Under the pieces are notes generated by a model, which had not been told where the DNA came from, made no database searches, and saw only the letters and a list, made by a program, of their open reading frames with translations. DNA of 64,000 bases, taken from Cloeon dipterum. Lineage: Eukaryota; Arthropoda; Insecta; Ephemeroptera; Baetidae. A program made the translations under genes and the position numbers. The stretch covers positions 35,078,335-35,142,334 of the forward strand of contig NC_088788.1 in NCBI RefSeq assembly GCF_949628265.1, in the 5' to 3' direction. Positions 3,137-64,000 of this stretch are shown here, one piece after another; the first letter of the stretch is position 1; the number at the start of each line of letters is the position of its first letter.

Positions 3137-3430
3137 GGAAGGTTGAAAAACGGGCATTTTTAACTCAGGTAAATTAAATGAGAATATTAATGAAAATCTA
3201 TATATTGATCATTAATCGGTCGATTTTGGCTTGGGGTCATCCCTTGAGATCATGGTAGCCCTCCAATGATCTATATAACATTAAATTAGCTTGTGTGACC
3301 ACTTTACCAACGCCTAACGGGCTCCGCAATCGTTCGATCTGCAAGATTTGTACACCGTTGGGACGGCAAAGTCGAGCGCTTTCCGAATACGTGTAATTTG
3401 ACCCTTGGGAAGTCATCGCAGGTCTCACAG
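3137..3430 (+). repeat. Half copy of a foldback MITE (family with 20340-21010)
   Basis: Aligned blocks with the copy at 20340-21010 include ACCGTTGGGAC, TTTGACCC and an ACGGGCTC-like stretch, in the same order. Only one arm of the palindrome is recognisable. Confidence 0.6.
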
Positions 3431-4264
3431 ATTACACCCCGATTTACCCATAATCTCGTTCCTGAGCACGCTGAAGGTTAAATAATGGAAAATATGAATA
3501 CATAATACTCAATTTACTTTTTACTGTCAATAAAAAAACAAAAAATTAGTGGTTTTTGATAATTATTACTAAGTCTGACGGTGCATTCTGGTGGAACTCT
3601 CCTCTTTCATCCTGTTTGCAATTTCGGGGTGTGTCCTTCCCTTTATTTTTTTTAATTCGGTTGAATACGTAATGCATGGTCTTTCGGATGTTTTAGTCAG
3701 GTTCTGGTCAATAATTTAAGTGAAATTTTGAGAGCCAAATTTAGTGCTGATTATCTATTAGACAAAAATGATTTTCAATGTTGTGGTTTAGGGAAAAACA
3801 GCAGTTTAAGTTCTATAACCCAGCCTGCTTACCCTCGTAACATAAATAATCATCATGTTTATTTGTATCCTCAAACGTACATAACGGTAGTGGTTGCGAT
3901 CCCATATTTCTTTTATTAAAAATCGATTTTTAATATTGTGTGATGAAGCTCCATTCCATAAACATGACCAAGTGATGCTACTTTTATCTTTTACGTTTCA
4001 AACGCATACACATTTAGTTTTTATGAAGTGCATGATTTAATTAGGTAATAAATGAGTACATTTTGACAATGTTTGACTCTAATGATTTGATGTGAAGCTA
4101 TATGTATTATTACAAACAAGTTATATAAATTACAAAAATGAATGTCCCTATTATTACAGGGCTGATTTGAACAGCATGACAAAATTAAAGAAAAATCATC
4201 TCATTGGCACTAACACAGATAGCTTTTAATAGCCCAGAACTCAACTTGTTTATAACCGAATCAT

Positions 4265-18298: not shown

Positions 18299-19861
18299 AT
18301 GACAGACATTGGCATGGATTTCTCCGTGACGTCTGTCCCTCCAGACGGCCAAAGATGGTTCTGCGAACTGGACGGTCGTCTACACAGTCGGCCTCGACAG
18401 GGATCTTTTAACCCTGAGTCACCTCTGCTGGCGGCCCTGACTGTTAGTTAATTAATAATTTTTAACGTATCATATAAAATATTCGTTTTAGGCCTACTGC
18501 GAGAACTTGGACGCACCGAGTGACAAAGCGCATGACCACTGGCGTGCCCCTCTGGACCATCAGCCCGGCGGCCTCTTCCTGTCCGCCCCGACGTCAACGG
18601 CGAAAGCTGCTGTGGCCGCCTTCTACCACCACGGCTGGGTGGCAGGCCTCGAAGTGCTCTCTAAACAAAATCGCTTGCTGGACCGCGTCCTCCGCTCATT
18701 GGCTCCCAAGCACCAGGTCGGGGGTCACCGGCCTCTGATGGCCGCCCACCCGACGGACAAAGAGCTGGCCGTCGCTTTCCGAGAGGATGTTGTGCGCGTA
18801 GTTGGTTGGGCCAAAGGACAGGCACACGACTTCAAGTCTAAATTCAGGGTGCTCTGCCTTGGTTGGCGGCCGTATGCCCACCACCTCGTAGCTGGTTGTG
18901 CTGCTGGACTGCTCGTGTGGAGTGCCAAACAGGTGAATTGTGTATTAATTTTTAAATAAGAATAACCTAAAGAGCTTTTCTACAGTTCTGCACAATATAA
19001 AACAGCAAAGCAACGGCAGAACCAAAGCCAGAATATTAATAAAAATTAAATATATCTAATTGACAGGAAAACAAACAGTATTCAGATCTGCCGATGAGCA
19101 CCGGGCGGCACTGCCTGCTGCCCAGTCCAAACAGCTGTCCAGTTGCCGCCGTGGCGTGGCAGCCAAAGGGTGACTACCTGGTGGCCGCGGCCGGCAACGA
19201 GCTGTACCTGGTGCGGCCCGAGACTGAGCATTGGTGGCTTCTGCCACGGGGAGCGGCCGCTCATCTGCTGCTTTGGTCACCATGCGGCCGGCGCCTGCTG
19301 GCCGCCTCATCCGGAGCCTCCTTCCACCTGTGGAACGCGGCCACCTGGACTGCTGAGCGGTGGACCGTTGCGCGAGGCTCCTTGGTGGCCGCCGCCTTTA
19401 GCCCAGACGGCCGCCTGATGCTGTTTGGCGATGAGGCTGGCCTCTATTGTCTGCCGACGGACGGACAAGCTTTCCTTATTGAGCAAACGCGCGTGACCGC
19501 CTTGGCCTGGGATGGGACGGTCCTGGCCGCTATTCATCATGGCAGCGCTGCGGTTCATGTTTACAGCACCAGAACTGATCCCCAACTCAACATTAGACCT
19601 TAGTAAGTTGCTCATCATTCAAACAGTTAGAAAATTTTAATTCTAACAGCGCAGAAACTAATTTCTTTCATAAACAACATTTAATTGTGTTTCAGTTTTG
19701 TAATTGATGGCAAGGAAGGCGAAATAGCATCATCTATCAACTTCTTCCCTGGCGCCAAGGGCGCCTCCTTGTTGGTGATCCTTTGGTCTTCAGGCAGAGT
19801 CCAATCCTTCCCTTTCACGACACAAGAAGCCTTTAGCAAAGCCAACAGCCGCAGATTCTGA
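18299..19861 (+). CDS. Aladin (WD-repeat nucleoporin), 4 exons, 428 aa
   Basis: The exons are 18299-18442, 18492-18932, 19067-19602 and 19696-19861, closing exactly to 428 codons plus stop. The beta-propeller blades match aladin in order: MAAHPTDKELAVAFREDVVR, then PYAHHLVAGCAAGLLVWS, SCPVAAVAWQPKGDYLVAA, LLLWSPCGRRLLAASSG with FHLWNAATWTAERW, AAFSPDGRLMLFG, and near the end LLVILWSSGRVQSFPF, matching the family's WSTGRI...IPL segment. Aladin is anchored at the nuclear pore and takes part in NLS import and spindle assembly; human AAAS mutations cause triple-A syndrome. The protein is somewhat shorter than the human one (about 546 aa), mainly at the C-terminus. Introns are short (49-134 bp). 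It shares a promoter region with the ZC3H3-like gene. Confidence 0.9.
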
Positions 19862-19993: not shown

Positions 19994-22900
19994 TTAGTCT
20001 TCATGGTCGGGCCAGACGCTGTCGATTTCCTCCTCGGCCGGCTTTGTCGCTTCCGCAGCAGCCTTGGGCACCAGCAGGTTGTGTACTGCCGGCAAACGGA
20101 AGAAGTAAGAGGAAGCCACGCTGCCCAAGGTGGCGCCCAGCCAGTAGACGACGAAGAACTGCGCGAATGTGTGTCCCAGGCAGCCCATCTTGAGTCCCGT
20201 GGCCAGCAGGGGGTTGTAATAGCCGCCAGAGTAGTTGAAGCCCATCACCACCTTGCCATTGGAGAATTCGATCAGATTGGTAGAAAGAAAATTCGGTAGA
20301 TGGCAAAATCCGGAAAAAACGGGCTTCTCGTAAACAACAAGTTGCAAAACGAGTATTTTTGAGTTCAGGAGAAAGTGATAAAATCAAAATTGCAGGTGGA
20401 ACATCCCTAGATTATGCCTGATGTCAAATAAGACCATAACAAATTGTAAAAAATCGAGCCCTGGCGTCAGGGTAGCTCTCGAGCAATCGATATCATTAAA
20501 TTCGCACATGTGGCTAATTTAATGACACCTGACGGGCTCTGTATTGGTTTGATCTGCAAGAACTGCACACCGTTGGGACAGCAATGTCAAGAGCTTCCAG
20601 AATTTGTCAATTTGACCCTTTGGAAACCTTCAGAGGTAACTCAGGAACGAGATTCTGGGCATATCAGGGTGTTTCCTGATCACCCTGATGGCTTCCACAG
20701 GGTAAATTGTACATATTCTGGAAGCTCTTGACTTGCACGTTCCAAAGTTGTGCAGTTCTTGCAGATTGAACCAATACAGAGCCCGTCAGGCGTCATTAAA
20801 GTGGCCACATATGGGAATTTAATATATCGCTTGCTGGAGAGCTACCCTGACGCTACGGCTCGATTTTTTTACCTATTCTGATGGTCTTATCTTACCTCAA
20901 GGGATGGGTCTAAGCATGTTCCACCGGCAAAAATCGACTTATCATGCGATTTTTATTTTATCACTTCACCCCTGAACTCAAAAACACATGTTTTTCCAAC
21001 CTTTTTTACTCTCTGCGTAAGTGCGTATCTAGAATTCTAGGAAAATGAAATTCACTAGACATTTAGATCCTGAACTCAAAAAAATACTTTTTGAAAATAA
21101 ATCCGTGGAAAAGCCCAGCAAGCAATATTTTCATTAATTGATTTACGCTTTTACCAAAGAAGTGGCGATGAAAGAATCAATGGCGGCGCCTTGTTTGGGA
21201 CCCAGCTCGCTGATAGTCCTTGAGGAGACACGGCAGATAAAGGTGGCGCCCAATTCTACCAAGGCACCATATAAAACGGGCACCTGGAAAAATTGGGAAA
21301 CATTTTTCAGTGAAAGTGAATTATATGACACATGAGCAGAGTGTCCATGCTATTAAAAATACCTGCAAGTCGGCGGTGCACCTGGCGGTTGCCCTGCCTT
21401 TGTGGTTTTCGACCATTTCAAGGCCCCAAATGAGTTGAATGTACTGGAAAACGGAGAGGGCGCCGATCAGGCCGAAGATTGTCTTGAGCACGACGACCCC
21501 GTAGTTGGTGCGGCGCTCGAGCAGGTCCTCGATGAAGGTGTAGGGGCAGGCGGTGGCGTCGCCCCAGTGCTTCGACCACCAAATCGTCAGCAGGAACAGT
21601 GACACCGCGTACGCTCCCACGCCGTAGTTGTCAGCGACTGCAAAGTGAGTTATAGTTATGAGGAAGGCAGGATATTAACGATTGAGCTGAGGTTGGAATT
21701 GTTCTGAAGTGTCTTTACTCGAATTAAATCAATCTGAGCGCGGGTCAAAATTCAAAATCAGCCGCAGCAGCATTTATCATTTTAATAGGTGAAAATTTTC
21801 TTGCATAATATTGTTCTCCTTGGTATCTTTAATTGTTTACACATTCTGTTAAGAAATTGAGTTTTATTTTATTGAGGGCTGTGAATTTTAAACATTTTTT
21901 TTTTTTCGGAAAAATAGTCGACTATTTTAAGACGGCATAGGATTTCAACTAATTGCATTAAATCCGCTGTCGGCAAGGGTATCGGATTTTGATGTAATTT
22001 GGTGGGGGTGTTTTGCCCTAGTGGACCTAAGGCCAGCCCAATAAAATTTATAATTTCAAAATTGCCTACTTTATAGGGGCTCAAAGTTGGCCAATTTTTA
22101 AAAAGTTGATTTTTCAGGGAAACTATTTAAGTATAAAGATAAATATAAAAAGGCGTCTAAAATTATCTACGCCCATCAACTTTGCTACGTTGACTAAATT
22201 TCTTGGTCAAAGGCCAAGGTCACTAAAATTTGACCTAAGATATCAAGAAATTCCTGATTATCGAAGAGAACAAAAATGTTTATTTTTCAGATTGCCAAAA
22301 TGTGCCTCATTGAATAAGGAAAAAATAAAAAATGATTTTTCCGCATTTTTGAGAAATTTGAATTTACATTTTGAAAACGTGGTTAATTTTGCCCCAATAT
22401 TAGACTCTGTAATTGTAGTCGTAATACTTTCACGCGGTCAGATTTGGTTAGTAATTTAGTTAGTGATCCCTTTTAAATTGATATGAGTTTTTAAAAGGGT
22501 TAAAATTAGCCCTAGAGAGATAAGTTTATTTTTTCTTTGCTGAGAAAAGAGTACATAAATAAAAACTTTTAACCCTTTAGCTAAAAATCACGTTGTCCGT
22601 TACGGACCCCACCGCTGAAGAATCAACGAAATTTGAGAAATATGGTGCAACGTATCTGATAAAATTATATTTGCCAACTTTTTACCCTTAATATTTTATC
22701 GCATTTTTCTGTCAAAATTTAACTCTTGCAGTTCCCTCTAATACCCCATTTTCACCCCCTTGTTGATTTCCGATGAGTCGTTGACTCAGAAATAATTTGT
22801 CATAGCAATGATTACGCGGTCTGCAACGGTTGAGAAAAACTGTCAATTATATTTCTAGATTTTACAGCCCTGTAAAATGAATTAAAACGCATACTTTTTT

Positions 22901-25707: not shown

Positions 25708-37617
<11,910 letters not shown>

Positions 37618-41787: not shown

Positions 41788-42735
41788 ATGAATAATGGTG
41801 ACAAAATTATCTCCTAAATATCAAGCACATCTTATAGAATTTTATATATTTTTAAAGGTGATGATGGCTTTACTCTTGTAACACGGAAGACTCGTTCCCA
41901 GAAAAAGGTCCGACTGCCTCTAGCCTCTAATTCTTCGGACAAGAAAAACCTTGTGATCGCCGAGGTTTCACGGGATTTAGCTATCAAGTGAGCTACAAAA
42001 AGTGGAATCTCTTAAGAATATTTTGTTATTTTATCGAGCTAGAAGACAATTTAATTATTTTAAAATTGCTTCTCCAGGCAGGTGCAAAAGTCTCGCTCAG
42101 AGATAGAGGCTAGTGAGTTCTTCAAGCAGGCGTTGTGCTCGCTGCAGGAAGGTCTCGAGTCGATCAAAAACGGCAGCGTCAAACATTTCCTCTGCTACGG
42201 CCTAGGCTGCTTCTCCAGCTGTCCAATAGCCAGGCATCAGCTGGGCTTTCTGCTGGCCCTGAAGGGGCATCTGGCGCCCCTGAGTGTGCTCCTCTACGAC
42301 CCTCTGTTCACGCCGCTCGAACGCAGTCTGCTAATTGACGAGTTTGGCCTCTCGCTGATCGACACGAACGAAGAGGGCAAGCGTTCGGTGTCCAAGGAAG
42401 GCTGCACTCTGGTGTTCGCCCCGCACTGTCCCAAGCAGCTGACCAACAACCTTCTCTGGGCCAACTGGCACCCTGAACTGCTCGGCCGTTGTCTGCTTCT
42501 GGCCAACAGTTTTAACTCCGTGGCGAACAACCCTGCCAGCCAACCTGAGACGGCAGAGTACCTCTTGCGCATTCACGAACACACCTGCGAGGTCGGCCTC
42601 AAGAATTCGTTTCGCCTCTACGACGTGTTCAACGACCTTGCTTTTCACTCATTCGACACTGAAAAGGTCACAATTTCTGAAAGAGATTCCACTTTCCCTA
42701 AACATGATTCTGCTCAAATTTTTGACGGGTTTTAA
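41788..42735 (+). CDS. SRR1-like protein (SRRD family), 3 exons, 265 aa
   Basis: The exons are 41788-41797 (ten bases), 41858-41987 and 42078-42735; phases close to 265 codons plus stop. The start is MNNGDDGFTLVTRKTR, like the family's short N-terminal signature. The SRR1 core is clear: FLCYGLGCFSSCPIARHQLG, LLYDPLFTPLERSLL, NEEGKRSVSKEGCTLVFAPHC, NNLLWANW and YDVFNDLAFHSF. SRR1 proteins affect circadian light input in plants and heme or circadian gene regulation in animals; the biochemical activity is not firmly known. The tiny first exon with a 60-bp intron is inferred from phase and splice sites. Confidence 0.85.
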
Positions 42736-49944: not shown

Positions 49945-50175
49945 GATATATATACAACAAAGTTGTATATACAACAATGAGTAACCTATATATACAACAA
50001 TGTTGTATACCTACAACAACGGTATATCCTATATATACAACAATGTTGTATACCTACAACAACGGTATATCCTATATATACAACAATTGTTGTATACCTA
50101 CAACAACGGTATATCCTATATATACAACAATTGTTGTATACCTACAACAACGGTATGTCCTATACCTACAACAAT
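49945..50175 (+). repeat. 43-44-bp palindrome-rich tandem repeat
   Basis: About four copies of a unit containing TATACCTACAACAACGGTAT and CCTATATATACAACAAT follow one another. Each unit contains ACAACA(A)TTGTTGT palindromes. The array abuts the GC-rich left end of the transposon. Confidence 0.75.
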
Positions 50176-50179
50176 AGCA

Positions 50180-50363
50180 ATCTGGCAACATCGCAGAATG
50201 GGCGGCAACGACAAGCACTGAAAAGCCCGTGGACGACACCGACTGCCGGCGCCGGCTCACGGTCGTCGCCGCCATCTTGCCAAGCGGAGAGCGGAGCGCG
50301 GACCGGAGCGGAACTGTGAAAATTCCGGAAAACGAAGCCACGAGCACCAGAAAACAGGAAATG
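50180..50363 (+). promoter_or_regulatory. GC-rich outer end of the left inverted repeat, promoter-like
   Basis: This stretch is CpG-rich with a CCGCCATCTTG string (YY1-like) near 50269-50279. It is followed by a consensus donor GTG|GTAAGC at 50370 and an acceptor TTGTTCACAG ending near 50438. The layout looks like a promoter and first exon transcribed inward. Confidence 0.4.
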
Positions 50364-51407
50364 CTAGTGGTAAGCGAACAAAGAAAGCGGTCGCCAACTT
50401 TGCAAATCACACAGGAAGATTCGCCGTATTGTTCACAGGGACAAACGACCTGGGGACGACCCTGCGCGTCCAAGTCTGGACGGTGCCGATTCCCGCGTGG
50501 CATGGACACGACCCGAGGAAGGAAGGATTTGGCCTTGTTGAGGTGAGTTTTAGCAGTGAAATTAGCACTGTGGGCTAATAATAAACCTGCCTTGTCTAGG
50601 TTGAGCAGCAGGCCCAGCAAATGTCGTCCGCAGTGGCGACGAAATGCAAAACAGGACACCTGGACGGTGCCGATTTTTGTTCGGTCGAGGAAGGAAGGGT
50701 TAGGCCTTGTTGAGGTGAGATTTAGCAGTGAAATTAGCACTGTGGGCTAATAATAAACCTGCCTTGTCTAGGTTGAGCAGCAGGCCCAGCAAATGTCGTC
50801 CGCAGTGGCGTTCAAATGCAAAACAGGACACCTGGACGGTGCAGATTTTTGTGCGGTCGAGGAAGGAAGGGTTAGGCCTTGTTGAGGTGAGTATTTTAGC
50901 AGTGAAATTAGCACTGTGGGCTAATAATAAACCTGCCTTGTCTAGGTTGAGCAGCAGGCCCAGCAAATGTCGTCCGCAGTGGCGTTCAAATGCAAAACAT
51001 GACACCTGGACGGTGCAGATTTTTGTGCGGTCGAGGAAGGAAGGGTTAGGCCTTGTTGAGGTGAGTATTTTAGCAGTGAAATTAGCACTGTGGGCTAATA
51101 ATAAACCTGCCTTGTCTAGGTTGAGCAGCAGGCCCAGCAAATGTCGTCCGCAGTGGCGTTCAAATGCAAAACAGGACACCTGGATGGTGCCGATTTTTGT
51201 TCAGTCGAGGAAGGAAGGGTTAGGCCTTGTTGAGGTGAGATTTAGCAGTGAAATTAGCACTGTAGGCTAATAATAAACCGGCCTTGTCTAGGTTGAGCAG
51301 CAGGCCCAGCAAATGTCGTCCGCAGTGGCGACGAAATGCAAAACAGGACACCTGGACGGTGCCGATTTTTGTTCGGTCGAGGAAGGAAGGGTTAGGTCTT
51401 GTTGAGG
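50364..51407 (+). repeat. Left inverted-repeat array of exon-intron-like units
   Basis: Five full units start at 50600, 50772, 50946, 51120 and 51292 (spacing 172-174), after a related but distinct first unit ending at 50541. Each unit has GTTGAGCAGCAGGCCCAG at its start and GTTGAG|GTGAG(T/A) at its end, then a 57-59-base AT-rich segment with GGCTAATAA and CTTGTCTAG. That equals a perfect donor, branch-like site and acceptor. The exon part is 115 nt, which shifts frame by one per copy. Confidence 0.85.
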
Positions 51408-51541
51408 TGAGTTTTAACAGTGAAATTAGCACTGGGCTGATTTGGATCTGTATTTTGGGCCATTATTTCTCGATTTTCTTTGGTGGAACTTGATTTTCTA
51501 TTCATAATAATCATACATAAACAGATTGCATATAATATGTA

Positions 51542-52977
51542 TGGCGGAGACACAATTCTGGGCCAGTCCACACTTCTGGGCCACTTCCATAAGAAAAGCA
51601 TTGATTTTATGGATTTTATTGTTGTGACCCACGTGATTTTAAATTGAACCAATTGGTTCAAAGTTTTTTGGTTCAAAGGGGGACAAAAATTGAACCAAAT
51701 CCTTAATGCAATGATTTCAAATAAAGAACCAATTGGTTTAATGAATAAATTTTCAAAATTTTAAATATATTTTAAATTTAGATGCAATTTGCACTTTTCG
51801 CACCTAAGGATGAATAGACTGATTAAGTCTTGTAATTTAATTGGCTGAAAACACATAACTTAATTAGTTCTTACCTGGATTCGAACCTTGTGATTTGTGA
51901 GCACATCCTCTACCCTCTGCACCACTCGCGTAACGGTATATGTTTTAAAAATTTGACGTATATATATCAAATAGGAAAAAACCGTGGAAGATGCGCCTGC
52001 TTTTAGTGACTAATCAGCCATTATGTGAGAAAACGTCCTGATTTAACTTATATTCTACTCTCATTGGGCCAGTTGCAACATTAAATATACCTACAAAAAC
52101 TTATTAATAAAGATTTCCGGGGTTATGTACCAATAAAATTTTCAAATTTTTATAAAAGGTTTGTTTTTTGGCATTTGGTTATTTGCAAGAAATTAAAAAA
52201 TGATTGCACACACCATTTGATGTTGGCAAATAATGAGTTAATAAACTGAAAAAAATTGAGAAATTTTTAATTTTGTGGTACTGAAACATATGAAGTTTTT
52301 GGTTCTCTGAATGAAAACAGCAATGTAGCAAAATTATACATTCCACCCCATCAATACTTAAAATGTTATTCTATATTGAAACCTAAAAAATATGAACCAA
52401 ATTCCCTGTTTTCTTGTGCATAGTGATTGTTTAATTAATGAAAGGAGTTAAAATTTAATCGGATCATAACATAATTTTTAAGATGTTCATATGGAAAAAA
52501 TCCAAAGTTTTTATTCGTTTTTTCCTAAATATTAACCAAAATATTTACATTATTCTGAGTCAAAAATACATACGAATGCTTGAAGTTTTGATTCTTTGTT
52601 GCAAATTATTGAACCAATAGATACTCTTAAACAAACTTTGCTTCTATTTTTTAGAAATAAAGAACCAAAACTCTGTTACAGACATGATTTGATTCTTTAT
52701 TTTAAAAAATTGAACCAAAACTTCTGTATGTTGCTTCATTAAAACAAAAAATTGAACCAACTTGGTTCATTGATTTGATTTTGAACCAAAATTGGTTCTA
52801 TTAATAGGATAATTGCATCAATTGGTTCAAAAAAGTGCAATCTTTGAACCAAATGACCAAAATTGAACCAATTGGTTCAATTTAAAATCACGTGGGGACC
52901 CATCAACAATGAAAACAATGCTATTTAAATGGAAGTGGCCCAGAAGTGTGGAATGGCCCAGAATTGTGTCTCCGCCA
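51542..52977. mobile_element. 1436-bp inverted-repeat element inserted in the MULE
   Basis: The termini are TGGCGGAGACACAATTCTGG and its complement, flanked by TA on both sides. The inverted arms extend about 120 bp. TA target duplications suggest a Tc1/mariner-type mover, but no transposase is encoded. The interior carries repeated GAACCAATTGGTTC palindromes near both arms. Confidence 0.75.
51880..51940 (-). repeat. tRNA-like pol III promoter fragment
   Basis: On the minus strand, TGGTGCAGAGGG fits the A box and GGTTCGAATCC is a perfect B box about 35 bases later. A proper acceptor stem and anticodon arm cannot be drawn, so it looks like a tRNA-derived SINE head or tRNA relic inside the TA-flanked element. 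Confidence 0.4.
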
Positions 52978-53054
52978 TATGTAAAATATTATCAAAATGC
53001 AAACAGAGAATGTATACATGCAAATATATGTACCATAACTTTTAGCGCATTAAA

Positions 53055-53209
53055 ACCTGCCTTGTCTAGGTTGAGCAGCAGGCCCAGCAAATGTCGTCCG
53101 CAGTGGCGTTCAAATGCAAAACAGGACACCTGGACGGTGCCGATTTTTGTGCGGTCGAGGAAGGAAGGGTTAGGCCTTGTTGAGGTGAGTTTTAGCAGTG
53201 AAATTAGCA
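53055..53209 (+). repeat. Isolated unit of the MULE end array
   Basis: A single unit begins CCTGCCTTGTCTAGGTTGAG and runs through GTTGAGGTGAGTTTTAGC. It is the inner continuation of the left array, separated from it by the TA-flanked element and cut by the Penelope-like insertion. Confidence 0.8.
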
Positions 53210-54472
53210 ATTCATTTATTAAGGAAATTTATATATAAGGTCAAATTCAAGTACATTAGAATTTTGGTAATATATCACGCAAGACGTGGGAAAGGAGTGT
53301 TTGATAGGAGTCTTGTGTACTTACTTGTTGATGTTACGAACACACAAAAGATGAGGAGATAGTTTGTTTGGAGAAATTTTCGGCACTGCATGTGTGAGTG
53401 CCTTCGTCAGCTCGCGTAGGTAGAATGAGATGAGAGCGGTGATGATGTAGGAGTACACACGTTATGGTCAGGGTTGGTGGAGGGGGGAAGGGTAGTTGGT
53501 GGAGGTGGTTGTGTGATATATTGCTTGATCTTAAAATTTCTATTTTTTTACTTTTTATTTACATGGTTAAGTCTTGCTCTGAATTTATTTAAATGTATCT
53601 ATTTATGCCAGGGACGGTTTGAGATTGGAAATCGTAAATAAAGGCCTGTTCTAATCTACGTAGGTCGCCGGGGGTTGATTTTTTTGGGAGTGATGTAATT
53701 ATTTTTACTGTGAAACATTTTTCTAATTCTCTTTTATTGTGACAGAGCGCATGTTCAGCTACCGGAACATCTGCTTCACGCCGTACCGTTTGTCTGTGGC
53801 CATTCATTCGTGATCTCAGGGTATTTATTGTTTTGCCAATATAATGGGCGTCGCAAAATTTGCATTGAAGGAAGCAAACTAATTTTTCAGTTGTGCAGGT
53901 GTTATGGCCTGAAATAAGGTAATTTTTGCCTGTGTTTGGGGCTGTCACAGACTTTGCTGGTTTGTGGATTTGGCATGTTTTACACGGCGGGCCTCTTGTG
54001 GCTTGGGTTTTGAATTGTTTGCAAGGGTATGAGCCTTGTGGGCCTTTTGGTGGCGCCGGGTTTAGATTTTCCGTTGTGGGTTTTTTGCAATAATGTTTGC
54101 TAAATTGGCGCTCCTTGAGAATGCGAGAGTCGCTGGCTTTTTAAAGATATCTTTTGTGACTTTTGACGAAGTAAGGATGTTGGAGGCTAAATTTATTACT
54201 TTGCGCATTTTTTGTAAGCTGGGTTGATAAGGGAGTACTAGCGGAGGTATGGTATTTTCCCTATTATTTTTAGATTTTTTGTGATATATCGTTCTTTTAA
54301 TTTGCTTTTTAATTAATGACTCGTCATAACCTTGTTTTTTGAAAGCATCTGAGATCCTTGTTTTATATTTTTCAAATCCTTCTTCTGTCGTGCATATTCT
54401 TTTTCCTTCCTTTACCAAAATTCTAATGTATTTGAATTTGACCTTATATATCAATTTCCTTAATATATGAAT
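53210..54472 (-). mobile_element. Penelope-like element fragment with inverted ends
   Basis: About 60-bp inverted repeats (53210-53272 and 54413-54472) bound the fragment. Between them, minus-strand coding remnants show the post-reverse-transcriptase region (LVLPYQPSLQKMRKVI, SRSANLANII) and a GIY-YIG endonuclease-type segment (HYIGKTINTLRSRMNGH). The reverse transcriptase core is absent, so the copy is 5' truncated. The insertion interrupts a MULE end unit, with GCA on both sides. Confidence 0.75.
53378..53410 (-). ncRNA. Hammerhead-ribozyme-like motif of the Penelope-like element
   Basis: On the minus strand CTGACGA is followed by a six-base-pair stem (GGCACT with AGTGCC) and GAAA, the hammerhead core order. 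Hammerhead ribozymes are known in the pseudo-LTRs of Penelope-like elements, and this lies downstream of the GIY-YIG segment. One extra A separates the core from the stem, so activity is uncertain. Confidence 0.5.
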
Positions 54473-54522
54473 TTATATTTCCAAAATGGATAATATTTTC
54501 ATGAAAAATATTGCAATAAGCA

Positions 54523-54600
54523 CTGGGCTAATAATAAACCTGCCTTGTCTAGGTTGAGCAGCAGGCCAGGTGAATGCCGTCCGCAGTGGCGATTAAGATT
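54523..54600 (+). repeat. Truncated MULE end unit after the Penelope-like insertion
   Basis: GCACTGGGCTAATAATAAACC and CTTGTCTAGGTTGAGCAG continue the unit interrupted at 53209, then the match decays after CCGTCCGCAGTGGCGA. Confidence 0.75.
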
Positions 54601-55222
54601 CAGTGCAAGTAACCATGGATATGGAGGGAGCTGTCATAATCTCCTTGGACTTGATTGGATATCCATGGTAATTAAAATTTCAGAGTTGCATTGACAGCAG
54701 CAATTAAAAGTATTGGTATATGGAAGCATTTATAATGCAATTTAATTAACATTGTTTCCATTAATAAATATTGAGGATTTTTTAAAACATTTCCGTAATA
54801 TGCGATATTAATGGAAGTGAATATAATTTCTATCAATAATATGCGACTGAATGGCAATGAGAGTGTGACCTTCAAAGACACAAGAGTAACTGGTAGAACT
54901 GCGATGTTAAGAATTTGCATTTAATCATCATAGTCAAAAATTAATTCACATTTTATTTGGAAAAGGATTTTGTTTAAAATAAATTGTAGATCTGCTTGTT
55001 TTATGAATGAAAACTAATGTTCGCGGCGAGTATCTACCAGTATTTTTAAATTTTTAAGAATTAAACGCTGAGTGTTAATGAATGGAAATTTTATTAAATT
55101 TTGCTTTTATTGACAAGTATTTGTAATAAATAATTGTTTACAATCAAATGTGAACCTATTGAACTGACACACATGAACAGAAATTCATATTGTTTTACAT
55201 GTTCACAACTTGCTCTCTAATG

Positions 55223-58200
55223 TCAATCATTTACTTGCGAATCTTCACAAGTTGAACTAGCACTGTCTGAGTCATTTAGGCCAAACTCTTTGATTGGCGT
55301 CTGCCTGATAGTGACTGTTGCACTCAAATTTTTGTCACCACATAGACCACATTTCCAGTTGGCAATTTCCTTGAATGATAAATTCAGGTCACCCTCAATT
55401 TCTGCTCTAGGGTGTCCAATACACCTTGGATGTAGCCAATTTTCACAAACAGGACACTGCATTGTGCGTTTGTCAAACGATTGGGGCATTTTGCAAATGC
55501 AGTAGAGGGGGACAGTAATGACTTCTCGGACAGAAGTTGTGTTCTTGGGACCAGGCTTTGCCTTCGAAGGGAAAGCAATCAGTTTGTCAGTCACAAGTAA
55601 ATAGGCCAAATGGCGCTTCATCAAATTTGTTACAAAATGCTTGTTGGGATCAACATGGCCATACATAGCAATCTCTGTTGCATTTGCAATAGCAAACAGT
55701 CCACAATTGTTAGCATCCTTCTTTTGATATTGACAGACCATCTTGTTAATTTTCAACTCATTTAAGTCACAATCTTTGGCGATATGAGCAAACTGAATTT
55801 CTGTAGAATCTGCAATTGGCCTATTTCGCTTTGAATCGTAGTAGAAAAATTCCTTTCCATCAAACCTAACGGTAATCCAATGCGCAAGGGTGTGCAAAAT
55901 CTGCACGTATTCTTTTTTAAGACAAGCTTGGTAACAGTCTACTTGCAATTGCACCAGTGCAGGTGACTGAAGTCCTTGATATTTTTCTTCTTTGTCCAGC
56001 TTCTCAATAAACATGGCCACAAAGTCATCAGGCACCTCAATGTTGTTGTCGAAAAATTCTTCAATCAGTTTCACACTAAAAGGTGTTTTTTCCATGAGTA
56101 GCTCCTTCAGTTTTTCTATAATATTAAGAAATTTTGCAAATTTCATTAACGTAACTCATTTGATCATTATATATGCTTCATAATATAATTGCAAATTGTA
56201 ATTTTTTTACAATATACCATCATCATTTCCAGCTGGATTCTTGCTCTGCGCGTGCTTCTTCAGCTTGTCCCGGTGCTCGTTACTTGTCCCTTTTGGTCGA
56301 CCACGGACCTTTGGTTTTAGTGGAAAACCAATCTTCTGCTGAGAAGTGATGTTTCTCAAAAACTCTGATGCTGGAAGAAGTGAGTTATAATTAGTATGCT
56401 CATAATTTATTAATCATGATTTTTGTACCTGAAGTAATTCTGATTGTATCAAATCCAGGCTCAGTTGCAATATCTCTGCTCTTACTTGCCTCATTTCTGC
56501 CTGCATTGTTCTCTGAAATCGAATACATTGTTTTGGTGAAAAATTTACATTTGTCTTACACACATACCACCTTCTGATTGCTTGCTGTCCAAGCCAGAAT
56601 TGATTCCAGTGCTGAGAGCTGAAATCTCAGCCTGGCTTATCTGTTGTAAACCATACTCGCTGATTTCATCTGAACGCAGAAAAAAGAAAAATTAATAATT
56701 TCATACTTTACAATCATCTCAGTACCACTCAGTTTGCTCTGCTCCTGCCTCTCTCTCTGAGAAAGAGCAATGTCTTCTATTTGTGAAATTTGTCTCAGCG
56801 CCTCGTCATCGAGAGCTACGGGAGATAGTTTTTATCAACATTATACAAGATATTGTTGCTGTAAACTAAAAATACCATCATCCTGTTCAACAGCATCAAC
56901 CTCTGCTTTCTCACTTTTGGTAACGCTTGTTGTTGCATTTATCATTTCATCAGATTCATCTTGTAACATTGATTGTTAGTGGATAAAATACTCTTAGGGA
57001 ACGGAGTTTTTACCTATTGTAAGATCAATTTCTATCACTTTTTTAGGCGTGCTGCTAATTAGTGGTGGTCCAGCTTTGGCCTCTTTCACATCATCGCTCT
57101 TCTCATAAACCTCGACTTCCCCAGAGCTATCTTTCTCATTCTCTAAATCCTTGCCAGCGTCTTGACCCCTAGAGCCAAATTCCTCAATTGCAGATTCTTC
57201 TTCATGAGCCACTGCAATTTCCACCGAGCCATCTTTATCCTCCTCGAAATCCTTGCCTGCCTCTTGCCCAGCAGATTCAACTTCTGACACTTCAACCAGC
57301 GCCAATCCGTCTTCCGCAGAGCCAATTTCCCGACCCTGTGACTCCTCAGCTTGCACAGAATAGTTTGCCTGTGCCTCAACATTATTTCCATCATCTTCGC
57401 AAGAGACAGAGCAGACTTCTTCAACGTCAAAAACTCCTACGTCTTCCACTGGACGCAACACATTCGCATTTCTGCCAGCTATAAATGTGAATTAATGTAA
57501 ATTTCTAGTACAAATCATATTATTATGTAAAATTACAATTTTTTCCAGCTACAAAGAAAGCTCCTTCAGTGTCAATTAATTGCTTAATCTGCTGCAGGTT
57601 CAATAGACTATCGTCAAATTGCTTTGTGCCAAGGTGTGATGCAGAATCAGCAATTTGCTTGCAGATGGCCAGAGCTCTGTTGTATTTTTGTTCTCGGCTC
57701 TGTGCTTTGGTAGCCCTTCTCGGAATTTGCACTAGCTGACTCTGAAATACATTTTAATTAAAAATACTAAACCAAAGTTCAATATTGTACCACATACCTC
57801 ATCATTTGTTTCAGAAGGAGGCAGCTGCTGCTCACAAGTTTGGTATTGAATGGTCCAGCGCATTGGGATTTCCACAGCATCGATCATGGGAAGCCCAATT
57901 TCCTTCCTCAGAGCCATGATGTGGTAGCAAGGTAATTTAATGCCCTTATAGAAAGGGCATTGACAGTTTAGCTCTGTAGTTTTGTAAGTAGTGAAGTATT
58001 CCCTCTTGCACAAAGGCACATATTTTTCTTGCTTTTCGAGCAGAGTGATGCAGTACTCGGTATAATCTTTGAGAGCTTTTCGTGCCTCCGAGACCACTGC
58101 TCCCTGTTGTGGCCTGTATGTGCTAACCTTTGTTGTGTAGCAGTGCTTCTTGTATTCAAGGCTTACGGTTTTGTCATATTGGAGCATGATGAGCTTTTTG

Positions 58201-60367
58201 ATAGTAAACACTAGGGATCCATTCCGTTTAAGAACCATGGATAAGGCTTTATTGTGCGATTCACAATGATTTGTCGTCCGGATTCCGAAGTTCTCTGACA
58301 TGGACCTGCCAAAAGCAGTCCACATTTCTTTGCAACTGTGCCAATTCTTGTCATAGTAGGCCCTGAACTTCTGCTTGCTATCCGGAATCAGTTGGCACAG
58401 TTTGTTGTAGAGTTCCATGTATACAGCTTCTGTTCGTGCTTCGAACATTAGTTTCTCGACAATGGCCTGAATTTCTTCTTTGACTTCTGGTGGTGCTGCT
58501 GTTCTAGCTTCATTTCGCAAGTGCTTGCTGCTATGGAACAGACAGTAGTCAACTTGAGCATGTGGGAAAACAGCTTGAATGGCTGCGAATTCTGACATGT
58601 CCTTATCGATAAAGACAGTCTTAAGCTCCCCAGTGTAATTCTTGTGTGCTTCTTGCAGTGCTTGCAGGGCAGATGTCACTGTTGAAGCCCTCTCGTCAGC
58701 CAAAACACTATAACCAACCACTCTCCCTGCTCTATTTCCATCGACCACCATGAAGCATGTGATTGGTAACCGATATGCATTTTTGTTGTAGGTTGAATCA
58801 AACAGGAGCAGCTCTGGAAATTTTGCGTAATTCTTCTTCATCTCTGAGGTTGCGATGAAAAGACATGAGAAGTTGCCCTCCGGACCAGTGATGATTGTGT
58901 ATGATCCTAATTACAAACATAATATGCAATGGTAAGCTCAATTTAGCTGACATTTTCATAAACACTGGATACCTTCAGAGTCCTTTTCAAACAAATCCCT
59001 CATAGTTTCTGCTGCAAGCATCAATTCCCTCTCATGTGGCTCAAAATTTGCATATTTTTCGGTTTCTTCCCTCTTCTTCCTTTGTCTGTGATAAAAAGAT
59101 GAATATAAACCTGTTTCAAGTAAATTCTAAATTTGTTTATTTTTTTTCAGGCAATCTATTGGCATGATATGGTTCAGGACTTGGGGTCTAAAGGATTGAG
59201 AAAGCCTGGTGTCAGATAAGTGAAACATAACAAGTTGATAAATGTGTACTTTGTGAGCTCCTATTTTTTCAGATTCCGGATGGTGGATCTCCATTGGCAA
59301 AAAAATAAGCTGGTATGCGAATGTCATAAATAATATTCAAACCCTCTGAAACGAGAACTAAAGGTGCATGGAGACAAGATAATACCTAATGAAATCAAAA
59401 TGTGCTGTCATCGAGAGTTCACTACTTGAGAAACTCGATTTTAATCATATAACCATCTTTAGAATATTTACATGTGAAAGTATACCATTTTATAATCAAT
59501 AGAAAATTTTGTAGCCAGATTTTTATGTGTTATATTGATATATTACTTCTCATTGTCCAGATCCTTGGGTAGGACTGCTTTCCCCGTCTCCTTCATGATA
59601 ACCTCTCTTATCTTGGTTGGATTCACTCCAAGGTCGTCAAGCTGCTGCAGACGCTCCTTCTCTGTGTTGTTCAATCTACGCTGCTTAGGGTATTGTGCAA
59701 AATCAGCCGGACATGGTTTGTGCACCTTTTCATGTACGTCTGTGGTCACGTGACAGTCGTAGATGTATAGCATTTCATTACGAGTGCCCACCTTGAAATA
59801 GGCACCACAGCCAAGTTTGTAGGATCTGAAAAATTATTGTTCCTTATAACAATGTAGCTAATGATATGCAATATTGAAAGAAAAAATTTGGATAATATGT
59901 ATTGCATACAAAAATCAAAATAATATGTGCTTAGCATTAAGGATATGTGAAGTTTTTGTATTAATGTATTACAAATAATCACAATTTTCAAATTAAGGGC
60001 ACAGTGTAGTGCAAATTATTCTCATGTTTCCAATTGCTCAAAATCCCTCATAACTGAATGCACATGTTGGAAAATATGTAATGTATATTTACTTCTGATT
60101 GGGGCGCTGCCCTGTCGAACGACCATCAACGGGATCTCCATAATGGATACATGCATATTTGGCAGATCTAATGACCAATTTGTTCTTCTTTGTCTCCAAT
60201 TTGGCCCTGGCCGCTGCATCAACCACCTTGTCAGAGATTTTTATGTAGTTGCTGCTTAGGCATGTATACACAATGAAGGTTTCTTGTTCCAATGCCTTAA
60301 TTGCCTCTGAAAGATCACTAAAACTTTTGAAGGTCTTGCCATTTGTGATTGACAGTGTTTGTGCCAT
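55223..60367 (-). CDS. MULE transposase fused to Ulp1 protease and PHD finger, 12 exons, about 1282 aa
   Basis: The exons on the minus strand are 60367-60093, 59825-59547, 59085-58973, 58906-57798, 57741-57537, 57478-57014, 56959-56876, 56815-56726, 56669-56571, 56512-56429, 56370-56218 and 56115-55223. All phases agree, with no stop over 1282 codons. Residues 1-185 form a zinc DNA-binding region (C73, C98, H117, H123). Residues about 245-450 are a DDE MULE transposase: FDSTY (D259), VFIDKD (D323), HCESHNKAL (E438). A SWIM finger follows (C537, C539, C549, H551). Then come an acidic region (about 680-840), an AT-hook RGRPKG (957-962), a C48 Ulp1-type protease (H1064 in AHWITV, D1079, C1123 in DANNCGLFAIA) and a C4HC3 PHD finger (1191-1244). 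All catalytic residues are present. Inferred role: transposition, with possible deSUMOylation and histone-tail reading. Transcription may start in the right end array. Confidence 0.85.
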
Positions 60368-61473: not shown

Positions 61474-61834
61474 TGCTTCTTTCTACACATTCCTCAAATT
61501 GATGGTTCAAGTGATTGACAGTCATCCGTGAAAAATGTTTACTCACCACTCATTTTAGCATCAATCTAATGGATCACCCAATCCAAAATCCACCTCTAAT
61601 TCAACCAACGTCCAGTGCACCCATCATCCATAATATAATAAAAAATTTTACAGTAAACTAGGTACAATTGAATTCACGGTTACTGTAATTTAATTATATT
61701 TTCTCCAAAAAACTGACATACCCCCCCTTTACCAATATTTTGGATTGGGAGATCATAAGATTCATGCTAAAATGAATGGCGAATAAACATTTGCAAGGAT
61801 GACTGTCAATTTGAGGTATGTGTAGAAAGAAGCA
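61474..61834. mobile_element. 361-bp hairpin MITE inside the MULE
   Basis: TGCTTCTTTCTACACAT at the left is matched by ATGTGTAGAAAGAAGCA at the right, and the inverted similarity extends about 110 bp inward (TGACAGTCATCC, ATTTTAGCAT, CCCAATCCAAAA). It has no coding capacity and sits immediately inside the right array. Confidence 0.75.
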
Positions 61835-61837
61835 TTA

Positions 61838-64000
61838 TTAGCCCACAGTGCTAATTTCACTGCTAAAACTCACCTCAACAAGGCCTAACCCTTCCTTCCT
61901 CGACCGCACAAAAATCGGCACCGTCCAGGTGTCCTGTTTTGCATTTGAACGCCACTGCGGACGACATTTGCTGGGCCTGCTGCTCAACCTAGACAAGGCA
62001 GGTTTATTATTAGCCCACAGTGCTAATTTCACTGCTAAAACTCACCTCAACAAGGCCTAACCCTTCCTTCCTCGACCGAACAAAAATCGGCACCATCCAG
62101 GTGTCCTGTTTTGCATTTCGTCGCCACTGCGGACGACATTTGCTGGGCCTGCTGCTCAACCTAGACAAGGCAGGTTTATTATTAGCCCACAGTGCTAATT
62201 TCACTGCTAAATCTCACCTCAACAAGGCCTAACCCTTCCTTCCTCGACCGAACAAAAATCTGCACCGTCCAGGTGTCATGTTTTGCATTTGAACGCCACT
62301 GCGGACGACATTTGCTGGGCCTGCTGCTCAACCTAGACAAGGCAGGTTTATTATTAGCCCACAGTGCTAATTTCACTGCTAAAATACTCACCTCAACAAG
62401 TCCAAATCCTTCCTTCCTCGACCGCACAAAAATCTGCACCGTCCAGGTGTCCTGTTTTGCATTTGAACGCCACTGCGGACGACATTTGCTGGGCCTGCTG
62501 CTCAACCTAGACAAGGCAGGTTTATTATTAGCCCACAGTGCTAATTTCACTGCTAAAATACTCACCTCAACAAGGCCAAATCCTTCCTTCCTCGACCGCA
62601 CAAAAATCTGCACCGTCCAGGTGTCCTGTTTTGCATTTGAACGCCACTGCGGACGACATTTGCTGGGCCTGCTGCTCAACCTAGACAAGGCAGGTTTATT
62701 ATTAGCCCACAGTGCTAATTTCACCGCTAAATCTCACCTCAACAAGGCCTAACCCTTCCTTCCTCGACCGAACAAAAATCGGCACCGTCCAGGTGTCCTG
62801 TTTTGCATTTCGTCGCCACTGCGGACGACATTTGCTGGGCCTGCTGCTCAACCTAGACAAGGCAGGTTTATTATTAGCCCACAGTGCTAATTTCACTGCT
62901 AAAACTCACCTCAACAAGGCCTAACCCTTCCTTCCTCGACCGCACAAAAATCTTCCTTCCTCGACCGAACAAAAATCGGCACCATCCAGGTGTCCTGTTT
63001 GGCATTTCGTCGCCACTGCGGACGACATTTGCTGGGCCTGCTGCTCAACCTAGACAAGGCAGGTTTATTATTAGCCCACAGTGCTAATTTCACTGCTAAA
63101 TCTCACCTCAACAAGGCCTAACCCTTCCTTCCTCGACCGAACAAAAATCTGCACCGTCCAGGTGTCATGTTTTGCATTTGAACGCCACTGCGGACGACAT
63201 TTGCTGGGCCTGCTGCTCAACCTAGACAAGGCAGGTTTATTATTAGCCCACAGTGCTAATTTCACTGCTAAAATACTCACCTCAACAAGGCCAAATCCTT
63301 CCTTCCTCGACCGCACAAAAATCTGCACCGTCCAGGTGTCCTGTTTTGCATTTGAACGCCACTGCGGACGACATTTGCTGGGCCTGCTGCTCAACCTAGA
63401 CAAGGCAGGTTTATTATTAGCCCACAGTGCTAATTTCACTGCTAAAACTCACCTCAACAAGGCCTAACCCTTCCTTCCTCGACCGCACAAAAATCTTCCT
63501 TCCTCGACCGAACAAAAATCGGCACCATCCAGGTGTCCTGTTTTGCATTTCGTCGCCACTGCGGACGACATTTGCTGGGCCTGCTGCTCAACCTAGACAA
63601 GGCAGGTTTATTATTAGCCCACAGTGCTAATTTCACTGCTAAATCTCACCTCAACAAGGCCTAACCCTTCCTTCCTCGACCGAACAAAAATCGGCACCGT
63701 CCAGGTATCGTGCTTTGCATTTCGTCGCCACTGCGGACGACATTTGCTGGGCCTGCTGCTCAACCTAGACAAGGCAGGTTTATTATTAGCCCACAGTGCT
63801 AATTTCACTGCTAAAACTCACCTCAACAAGGCCAAATCCTTCCTTCCTCGGGTCGTGTCCATGCCACGCGGGAATCGGCACCGTCCAGACGTGGACGCGC
63901 AGGGTCGTCCCCAGGTCGTTTGTCCCTGTGAACAATACGGCGAATCTTCCTGTGTGATTTGCAAAGTTGGCGACCGCTTTCTTTGTTCGCTTACCACTAG
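61838..64000 (-). repeat. Right inverted-repeat array of exon-intron-like units
   Basis: Eleven units begin on the minus strand at 61988, 62160, 62332, 62506, 62680, 62852, 63049, 63221, 63395, 63592 and 63764, plus the divergent outer unit that mirrors 50364-50541. Spacing is 172 or 174, with two units of 197 that contain a 25-base internal duplication. Donor and acceptor consensus are kept in every unit. Transcription from the outer end would run directly toward the transposase start at 60367. Confidence 0.85.

What the first reader, a model, noticed from the sequence alone, without database searches (positions are those of the whole stretch)
55223..60367. A single transposon protein joining MULE transposase, SWIM, AT-hook, Ulp1 protease and PHD finger
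Seen: twelve exons keep one frame for about 1282 codons, and all catalytic and zinc-binding residues of five domains are present. Known: MULEs in plants have captured Ulp1-like sequences (Kaonashi-type), usually as separate genes, and animal MULEs often have SWIM fingers. Inference: an animal MULE that carries its own deSUMOylating or deubiquitinating protease and chromatin reader in cis could counter SUMO-linked silencing or choose chromatin targets. I am not aware of this exact architecture being described.
Basis: partly seen in the sequence, partly recalled or inferred. Interest (0 to 1): 0.88.

Follow-up and report, generated by a model that had tools for sequence, protein, structure and literature searches.

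The report
Rehavkus-like transposon with chromatin toolkit
This looks like the transposase gene of a large transposon, probably in an animal, lying between inverted arrays of short repeats; its one protein joins DNA-cutting, SUMO-binding, protease-like and histone-reader-like parts, a known kind of element in a combination that could let people test whether transposons interfere with SUMO-based silencing.

Summary
A predicted 12-exon minus-strand gene (60367-55223, 1281 aa, all 11 introns GT-AG) joins a MULE/ZSWIM1-3-type DDE domain, SWIM finger, AT-hook, CE-clan-like cysteine protease and C4HC3 PHD finger, with the expected residues present. The protease call is weaker than stated: no Pfam C48/Ulp1 match was listed, only weak matches and a complete H-D-Q-C motif. 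I add a SUMO-interacting motif with a PIAS-type core (VIEIDLTIDESDE, aa 808-820).

The larger point lies outside the given coordinates. The gene sits between inverted arms of 172-bp tandem repeats (left 50514-51434, right 61834-63850), each followed outward by the same non-array sequence (150 of 151 bases identical). This resembles Rehavkus, a MULE relative with a PHD-finger transposase and satellite arrays in its inverted ends. Published TIR lengths (26-400 bp) are shorter than these arms, and target-site duplication and sequence relatedness to Rehavkus could not be tested. Ulp1 domains on hydra and lancelet Mutator elements, and an Ulp1-PHD tail on Ginger1-9_HM, were published in 2010, so the broad architecture is known. 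Verdict: Rehavkus-like element, new variant of a known kind, with a plausible but untested SUMO- or ubiquitin-directed function.

The parts
55223..60367 (-). Transposase gene, 12 predicted exons, 1281 aa
   Evidence: Exon model with GT-AG introns and consistent phases
59547..60367 (-). Exons 1-2: N-terminal region resembling ZSWIM3_N (aa 8-108)
   Evidence: Pfam ZSWIM3_N E 0.0021, 19 bits, below cut-off 27.8
57798..58906 (-). Exon 4: DDE catalytic domain (D259, D323, E438; C344/H347) and SWIM finger (aa 537-551)
   Evidence: Pfam ZSWIM1-3 RNaseH 2.5e-26, MULE 5.9e-16, SWIM 7.7e-4; residues
56876..57478 (-). Exons 6-7: acidic linker with SUMO-interacting motif VIEIDLTIDESDE (aa 808-820) across the exon 6/7 junction
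   Evidence: Motif scan; (I/V)DLT as SIM core in a passage of PMC4907222
56571..56815 (-). Exons 8 and 9, similar to each other, possibly duplicated
   Evidence: Local alignment score 36, reached by 4 of 500 shuffles; best of 6 exon pairs tested
56218..56370 (-). Exon 11 with AT-hook core RGRPKG (aa 956-961)
   Evidence: Motif position only
55223..56115 (-). Exon 12: CE-clan-like cysteine protease (H1063, D1078, Q1113/Q1115, C1122) and C4HC3 PHD finger (aa 1190-1243)
   Evidence: PDB sequences: PHF2 1.9e-7 and BPTF 1.5e-6 for the PHD, ULP_PROTEASE chain 7fiu 0.033 and 0.0095 with the core alone; ElaD/SseL-like 0.0071 and Josephin 0.0098, both below cut-off
50364..50514 (+). Outer non-array part of the left inverted arm (may extend further left)
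   Evidence: 150 of 151 bases identical to the reverse complement of 63850-64000
50514..51434 (+). Left array, 5.3 copies of a 172-bp repeat
   Evidence: TRF; unit mapping, 5 full-length and 1 partial hit
53053..53209 (+). Further copy of the 172-bp repeat in the left arm, between two insertions
   Evidence: 157 bases, 100% complementary to 61849-62005
54529..54619 (+). Innermost diverged partial copy of the repeat in the left arm
   Evidence: 82% over 91 columns
61834..63850 (-). Right array, 172-bp repeats in opposite orientation
   Evidence: TRF, whole span as period 346, to 63496 as period 172; 11 full-length hits (one of them the query unit itself, two at 84%) and 1 partial
63850..64000 (-). 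Outer non-array part of the right inverted arm, cut by the end of the window

Best explanation
The region is a Rehavkus-like DNA transposon of the MULE superfamily, at least 13.6 kb as it stands and roughly 10.4 kb or more without three apparent insertions, with one intact predicted transposase gene. Shown: the gene model, the domain matches and motifs, the inverted arms with 172-bp repeats. Inferred: the transposase recognises the repeat-rich arms with its N-terminal region, SWIM and AT-hook; the DDE domain cuts and joins DNA as in other MULEs; the C-terminal tail works on chromatin or repair factors. In that tail the SIM would hold SUMO or SUMOylated proteins, the protease would remove SUMO (or ubiquitin) from proteins near the element, and the PHD finger would hold the complex at histone H3 tails. 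The likeliest benefit is to loosen SUMO-dependent silencing of the element. The confidence given is for the identity as a Rehavkus-like transposon; I put the anti-silencing role of the tail at about 0.4, beside the repair role listed as a rival.
For: Gene and domains. Inverted arms with tandem arrays around the gene, 150 of 151 outer bases identical. Dupeyron et al. [quoted passage not shown] PMC10218199 (passages): Rehavkus-1_TC is 9.5 kb with a 164-bp satellite in its inverted termini, mostly five and eight monomers per array; here 172 bp, 5.3 copies plus two isolated ones, and 11 plus a partial. AATAAA at 55111 and 55095, about 110 bases past the stop, and no methionine in aa 593-820. SIM: the only strict hit (shuffled proteins average 0.38); the DLT-type core appeared in 11 of 20000 shuffles, pattern chosen after seeing it. 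SUMOylation is needed for Argonaute-directed silencing in C. elegans (PMC8131101, abstract).
Against: No Rehavkus sequence was at hand, so relatedness was not tested. Dupeyron's table gives Rehavkus TIRs of 26-400 bp and its text a minisatellite before the 3' TIR only; here arrays lie on both sides and the uninterrupted left arm alone spans 1071 bases (the outer non-array part, at least 151, would fit). The table lists only PHD, not SWIM or a protease, for Rehavkus, and insect or annelid hosts; the host here was not identified. The TSD could not be read. No second copy was found, but the host genome is not held and the scans of viral and prokaryote collections reach only close relatives. No C48 profile was listed; ElaD/SseL and Josephin would fit a deubiquitinase as well. 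Two of four histone-cage positions (recalled) are not aromatic. No functional data.
Confidence: 0.7

Rival explanations
1. Identity rival: a host or domesticated ZSWIM3-like gene that happens to lie between two inverted copies of an unrelated repeat-bearing element.
For: Best Pfam match is ZSWIM1-3; the gene is intact, has 11 introns and is the only copy in the window; no TSD can be checked; the arms are longer than the TIRs tabulated for Rehavkus.
Against: The arms mirror each other with the same non-array ends and resemble the layout reported for Rehavkus-1_TC; [quoted passage not shown]
Confidence: 0.2
2. Structure rival: two adjacent genes, a MULE-SWIM transposase (exons 1-5) and a protease-PHD gene further on.
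For: ATTAAA in intron 4 (57758); AATAAA in exon 4 (58253) and intron 10 (56411); a stop if intron 5 is kept; GC3 0.49 in aa 1-592 against 0.39-0.40 after.
Against: Same strand, introns of 54-66 bases from exon 3 to exon 11, consistent phases; no methionine in aa 593-820; no AATAAA or ATTAAA on this strand between 57758 and 56411.
Confidence: 0.1
3. Function rival: the tail serves DNA repair or transpososome turnover, removing ubiquitin or SUMO from repair proteins or from the transposase.
For: Proposed for Ulp1 and OTU domains of transposases (PMC2836005 section 9); weak ElaD/SseL and Josephin matches hint at ubiquitin.
Against: A PIAS-type SIM core and a PHD finger fit SUMO and chromatin; nothing here separates the two roles decisively.
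Confidence: 0.35
4. Function rival: the protease-like domain is catalytically dead and only binds SUMO or ubiquitin.
For: Low similarity to known families.
Against: H1063, D1078, Q1113/Q1115 and C1122 are present in the usual order.
Confidence: 0.15

Closest known systems
Rehavkus (Rehavkus-1_TC, Tribolium castaneum)
   Same: MULE-like transposase in one ORF, PHD finger, satellite-like tandem arrays in inverted termini (164 bp there, 172 bp here), similar size (9.5 kb; at least about 10.4 kb here without insertions)
   Different: SWIM, AT-hook, SIM and protease are not listed for Rehavkus in the sources read; tabulated TIRs (26-400 bp) are shorter than the arms here; TSD and sequence relatedness untested
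Ulp1-bearing Mutator transposons of hydra and lancelet
   Same: Animal Mutator elements encoding an Ulp1 domain; PMC2836005 Fig. 1e legend speaks of an alignment of Ulp1 and PHD domains of Ginger1 and Mutator transposases
   Different: Which of them carry PHD, SWIM or SIM, and their termini, is not in the text read
Ginger1-9_HM
   Same: Transposase listed with C-terminal Ulp1 and PHD
   Different: Gypsy-integrase-type DDE and 4-bp TSD; here a MULE-type DDE
Kaonashi (KI-MULE) and other plant ULP-containing MULEs
   Same: MULE carrying a ULP-type protease domain
   Different: KI-MULE has no TIRs and has ULP in reverse orientation (other plant MULEs have it in either orientation); here one protein and inverted arms
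Tm1 (Mutator/Foldback element of root-knot nematodes)
   Same: MULE-type transposase inside composite inverted ends built of tandem repeats
   Different: Units of 13-15 bp, Phantom-like transposase with FLYWCH; the words Ulp1, PHD and SWIM do not occur in that text
ZSWIM1/ZSWIM3 proteins
   Same: RNaseH-like domain (strong), N-terminal domain (weak), SWIM
   Different: A protease and PHD tail is not part of those Pfam domain models

Membership tests
MULE superfamily | MULE-type DDE domain with C-x2-H between second D and E (motif recalled) | tested here: met
   PF10551 5.9e-16; D259, D323, C344/H347, E438
MULE superfamily | Inverted termini | tested here: met
   Inverted arms around the gene; no short inverted repeats directly beside the gene (best inverted match E 0.010)
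MULE superfamily | Target-site duplication of about 8-11 bp | not testable with these tools
   Right end lies beyond base 64000
Rehavkus | PHD finger in the transposase | tested here: met
   PHF2 1.9e-7; PF00628 20.2 to 22.7 bits, cut-off 24; C4HC3 spacing
Rehavkus | Minisatellite in or next to the inverted termini | tested here: met
   172-bp arrays on both sides, as for Rehavkus-1_TC; Dupeyron's text names only the 3' side
Rehavkus | TIR of 26-400 bp | tested here: inconclusive
   Left arm 1071 bases to the first insertion, arrays included; outer non-array part at least 151 bases; true ends unknown
Rehavkus | 9-bp TSD | not testable with these tools
   Right end outside window
Rehavkus | Transposase groups with Rehavkus sequences | not testable with these tools
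   No Rehavkus sequence was available
Peptidase C48 (Ulp1) | Match to the C48 family profile | tested here: not met
   None listed at E up to 10 (two queries) or up to 1 (exon 12); filters drop most matches above 0.1. One ULP-type PDB chain at 0.0095
Peptidase C48 (Ulp1) | H-D-Q-C catalytic set in order | tested here: met
   H1063, D1078, Q1113/Q1115, C1122; signature in 4 of 5000 shuffles, pattern chosen afterwards
Peptidase C48 (Ulp1) | deSUMOylating activity | not testable with these tools
   Needs an assay
ZSWIM1/3 | ZSWIM1-3 RNaseH-like domain | tested here: met
   PF21056 2.5e-26
ZSWIM1/3 | ZSWIM3 N-terminal domain | tested here: inconclusive
   PF21599 0.0021, 19 bits against cut-off 27.8
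Kaonashi-type MULE | ULP domain in reverse orientation to the transposase gene | tested here: not met
   Same strand; definition from PMC2528002 passage
Ginger1 | Gypsy-integrase-type DDE | tested here: not met
   No integrase family among the 11 Pfam families listed for the whole protein

The most novel reading that the evidence does not exclude
A transposon encodes, within its own transposase, a complete SUMO-targeting module (PIAS-type SIM, deSUMOylase, PHD reader) that strips SUMO-dependent silencing from its own copies in cis, a counterpart to the plant anti-silencing protein VANC.
Probability: 0.2. Interest if true: 0.8.

Novelty: new variant of a known kind. Interest (0 to 1): 0.45.

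Why it matters
ULP and OTU proteases recur on unrelated transposases, and the 2010 Ginger paper could only guess why. An intact gene that joins such a protease-like domain to a SIM and a histone-reader-like finger makes the anti-silencing and DNA-repair ideas directly testable. Rehavkus elements are, by Dupeyron et al., described in Repbase only; a mapped Rehavkus-like gene helps there.

Tried and rejected
Structure: exon 12 folded without relatives gave mean pLDDT 32.9, too poor to search, so I ran no fold search; the second structure job was not used. Relatives: scans for transposase exon 4 in viral contigs (3 pattern matches, none confirmed) and in prokaryote genomes (12 pattern matches, none confirmed), for exon 12 in viral contigs (none) and for the repeat in viral contigs (exact pattern, none). 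The host genome is not held and the host was not identified; 'animal' is an inference. Short terminal repeats right beside the gene: best inverted match E 0.010, 41 columns at 73%, rejected in favour of the distant arms. PDB search with the SIM peptide: nothing. The DNA comparison of exons 8 and 9 is void because the flanks overlapped. Rfam at gathering level: 0 matches in the window. Josephin (weak match) is, as I recall, a different protease clan from Ulp1, so it does not add to the CE-clan case. Literature searches on the architecture; they cover only the held open-licence papers. Repbase reports and supplements were not readable, so a Rehavkus protein with this same architecture may already be on record. 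On checking, I lowered the main confidence from 0.72 to 0.70 and raised the host-gene rival from 0.18 to 0.20 and the two-gene rival from 0.08 to 0.10, because the tabulated TIR length and two extra poly(A)-like sites had been left out.
Full report
Gene. Twelve minus-strand exons from 60367 to 55223 join in one frame to 1281 residues, with 11 GT-AG introns. In one search, 8 chains were open; they differ by single residues at three junctions, two of them true alternative donors (exons 8 and 9). Introns are 17-33% GC, the coding parts 40-45%, and 9 of 11 introns hold an in-frame stop. Splicing is predicted; there are no transcripts.

Domains. Pfam places a ZSWIM1-3 RNaseH-like domain (2.5e-26, aa 217-341) and the MULE domain (5.9e-16, aa 256-350) above cut-off; SWIM, PHD, DUF5575, Transposase_mut and ZSWIM3_N fall below theirs. 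The PDB sequence search supports the PHD finger (PHF2 1.9e-7, BPTF 1.5e-6). The protease is the weakest part: no C48 profile was listed; ElaD/SseL-like (0.0071) and Josephin (0.0098) are below cut-off; one ULP-type protease chain, 7fiu, matches at 0.033 with all of exon 12 and at 0.0095 with the core alone (0.022 for the aligned stretch), lining up the His-Trp and Asn-Cys-Gly motifs. All expected catalytic and zinc residues are present. I call it a CE-clan-like cysteine protease, not a proven Ulp1.

SUMO motif. Residues 808-820, VIEIDLTIDESDE, hold the (I/V)DLT core reported for SIMs that prefer SUMO2/3, and resemble the VIDLT core of PIAS1 (PMC4907222 and PMC3901395, passages); the acidic stretch after it is also typical (recalled). 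It was the only strict hit in the protein, where shuffled versions give 0.38 on average, so the loose form alone is not striking; the DLT-type core occurred in 11 of 20000 shuffles, with the pattern chosen after seeing it. It spans the exon 6/7 junction.

One gene or two. No methionine occurs in aa 593-820, no AATAAA or ATTAAA lies between 57758 and 56411 on this strand, and AATAAA occurs at 55111 and 55095 after the stop. Against one gene: ATTAAA in intron 4 (57758), AATAAA in exon 4 (58253) and intron 10 (56411), a stop if intron 5 is kept, and a GC3 drop after aa 592. Exons 8 and 9 resemble each other (4 of 500 shuffles reach the score; best of six pairs), which hints at exon duplication in the linker.

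Surroundings. A 172-bp repeat forms an array at 50514-51434 and, inverted, at 61834-63850. Beyond each array lies the same non-array sequence, 150 of 151 bases identical between 50364-50514 and the reverse of 63850-64000. Copies of the repeat at 53053-53209 and 54529-54619 appear to continue the left array across two insertions: one of about 1.6 kb with inverted ends, one of about 1.3 kb holding a GIY-YIG-like frame. A palindromic insertion of about 0.36 kb lies at 61474-61834. The right terminus is cut by the window.

Identity. Dupeyron et al. (PMC6446971, section 4) describe Rehavkus as MULE-like, with one ORF, PHD finger, minisatellite, TIRs of 26-400 bp and 9-bp TSD. [quoted passage not shown] PHD finger, single ORF and repeat arrays in inverted ends are met; TIR length is inconclusive because the arms here exceed 400 bases if arrays are counted; TSD and tree position could not be tested. 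I file it as Rehavkus-like, not as a proven member.

Novelty. The Ginger paper (PMC2836005, 2010) reports Ulp1 domains in hydra and lancelet Mutator elements and lists Ginger1-9_HM with Ulp1 and PHD. A 2026 survey of arthropod MULEs (PMC13359780, abstract and passages) names Rehavkus as part of the superfamily and uses it as outgroup; PHD, Ulp1 and SWIM do not occur in its main text, though its domain figure was not held. The combination with SIM and protease in a Rehavkus-like element was not found in the searches named under Tried and rejected; Repbase itself could not be read.

Mechanism. Best reading: a cut-and-paste transposase with a chromatin-acting tail. Argonaute-directed silencing in C. 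elegans requires SUMOylation of a histone deacetylase (PMC8131101, abstract), which would give a deSUMOylase a target; the DNA-repair role proposed for such domains is a serious rival. In the alignment the PHD finger keeps a tyrosine and a tryptophan at two of the four positions that form the methyl-lysine cage in PHF2 and BPTF (cage positions recalled), so binding of methylated H3K4 is possible but uncertain.

Noticed in passing
53210-54516: Insertion of about 1.3 kb in the left arm with a GIY-YIG-like frame (E 0.0029, 18.3 bits, cut-off 22.6) overlapping a second frame, and an inverted repeat of about 70 bp; resembles a Penelope-like fragment (recalled).
   Followed up: partly
51442-53052: Insertion of about 1.6 kb with inverted ends that interrupts the repeat array.
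   Followed up: partly
61474-61834: Palindromic MITE-like insertion of about 0.36 kb between the gene and the right array.
   Followed up: partly
49947-50175: A 44-bp tandem repeat (5.3 copies) just outside the left arm.
   Followed up: no
50268-50279: GCCGCCATCTTG, like a YY1 site (recalled), in a GC-rich stretch next to the outer left arm; could be promoter sequence.
   Followed up: no
20390-20930: A palindrome of about 540 bp (81% self-inverted) with related stretches at 30277-30534 and 3250-3479.
   Followed up: no
19064-19600; 31336-31767; 42064-42732: Ordinary gene fragments: Aladin propeller (2.9e-27, a fragment below cut-off), 5'-nucleotidase family (4.3e-33), SRR1 domain (5.3e-36).
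   Followed up: partly
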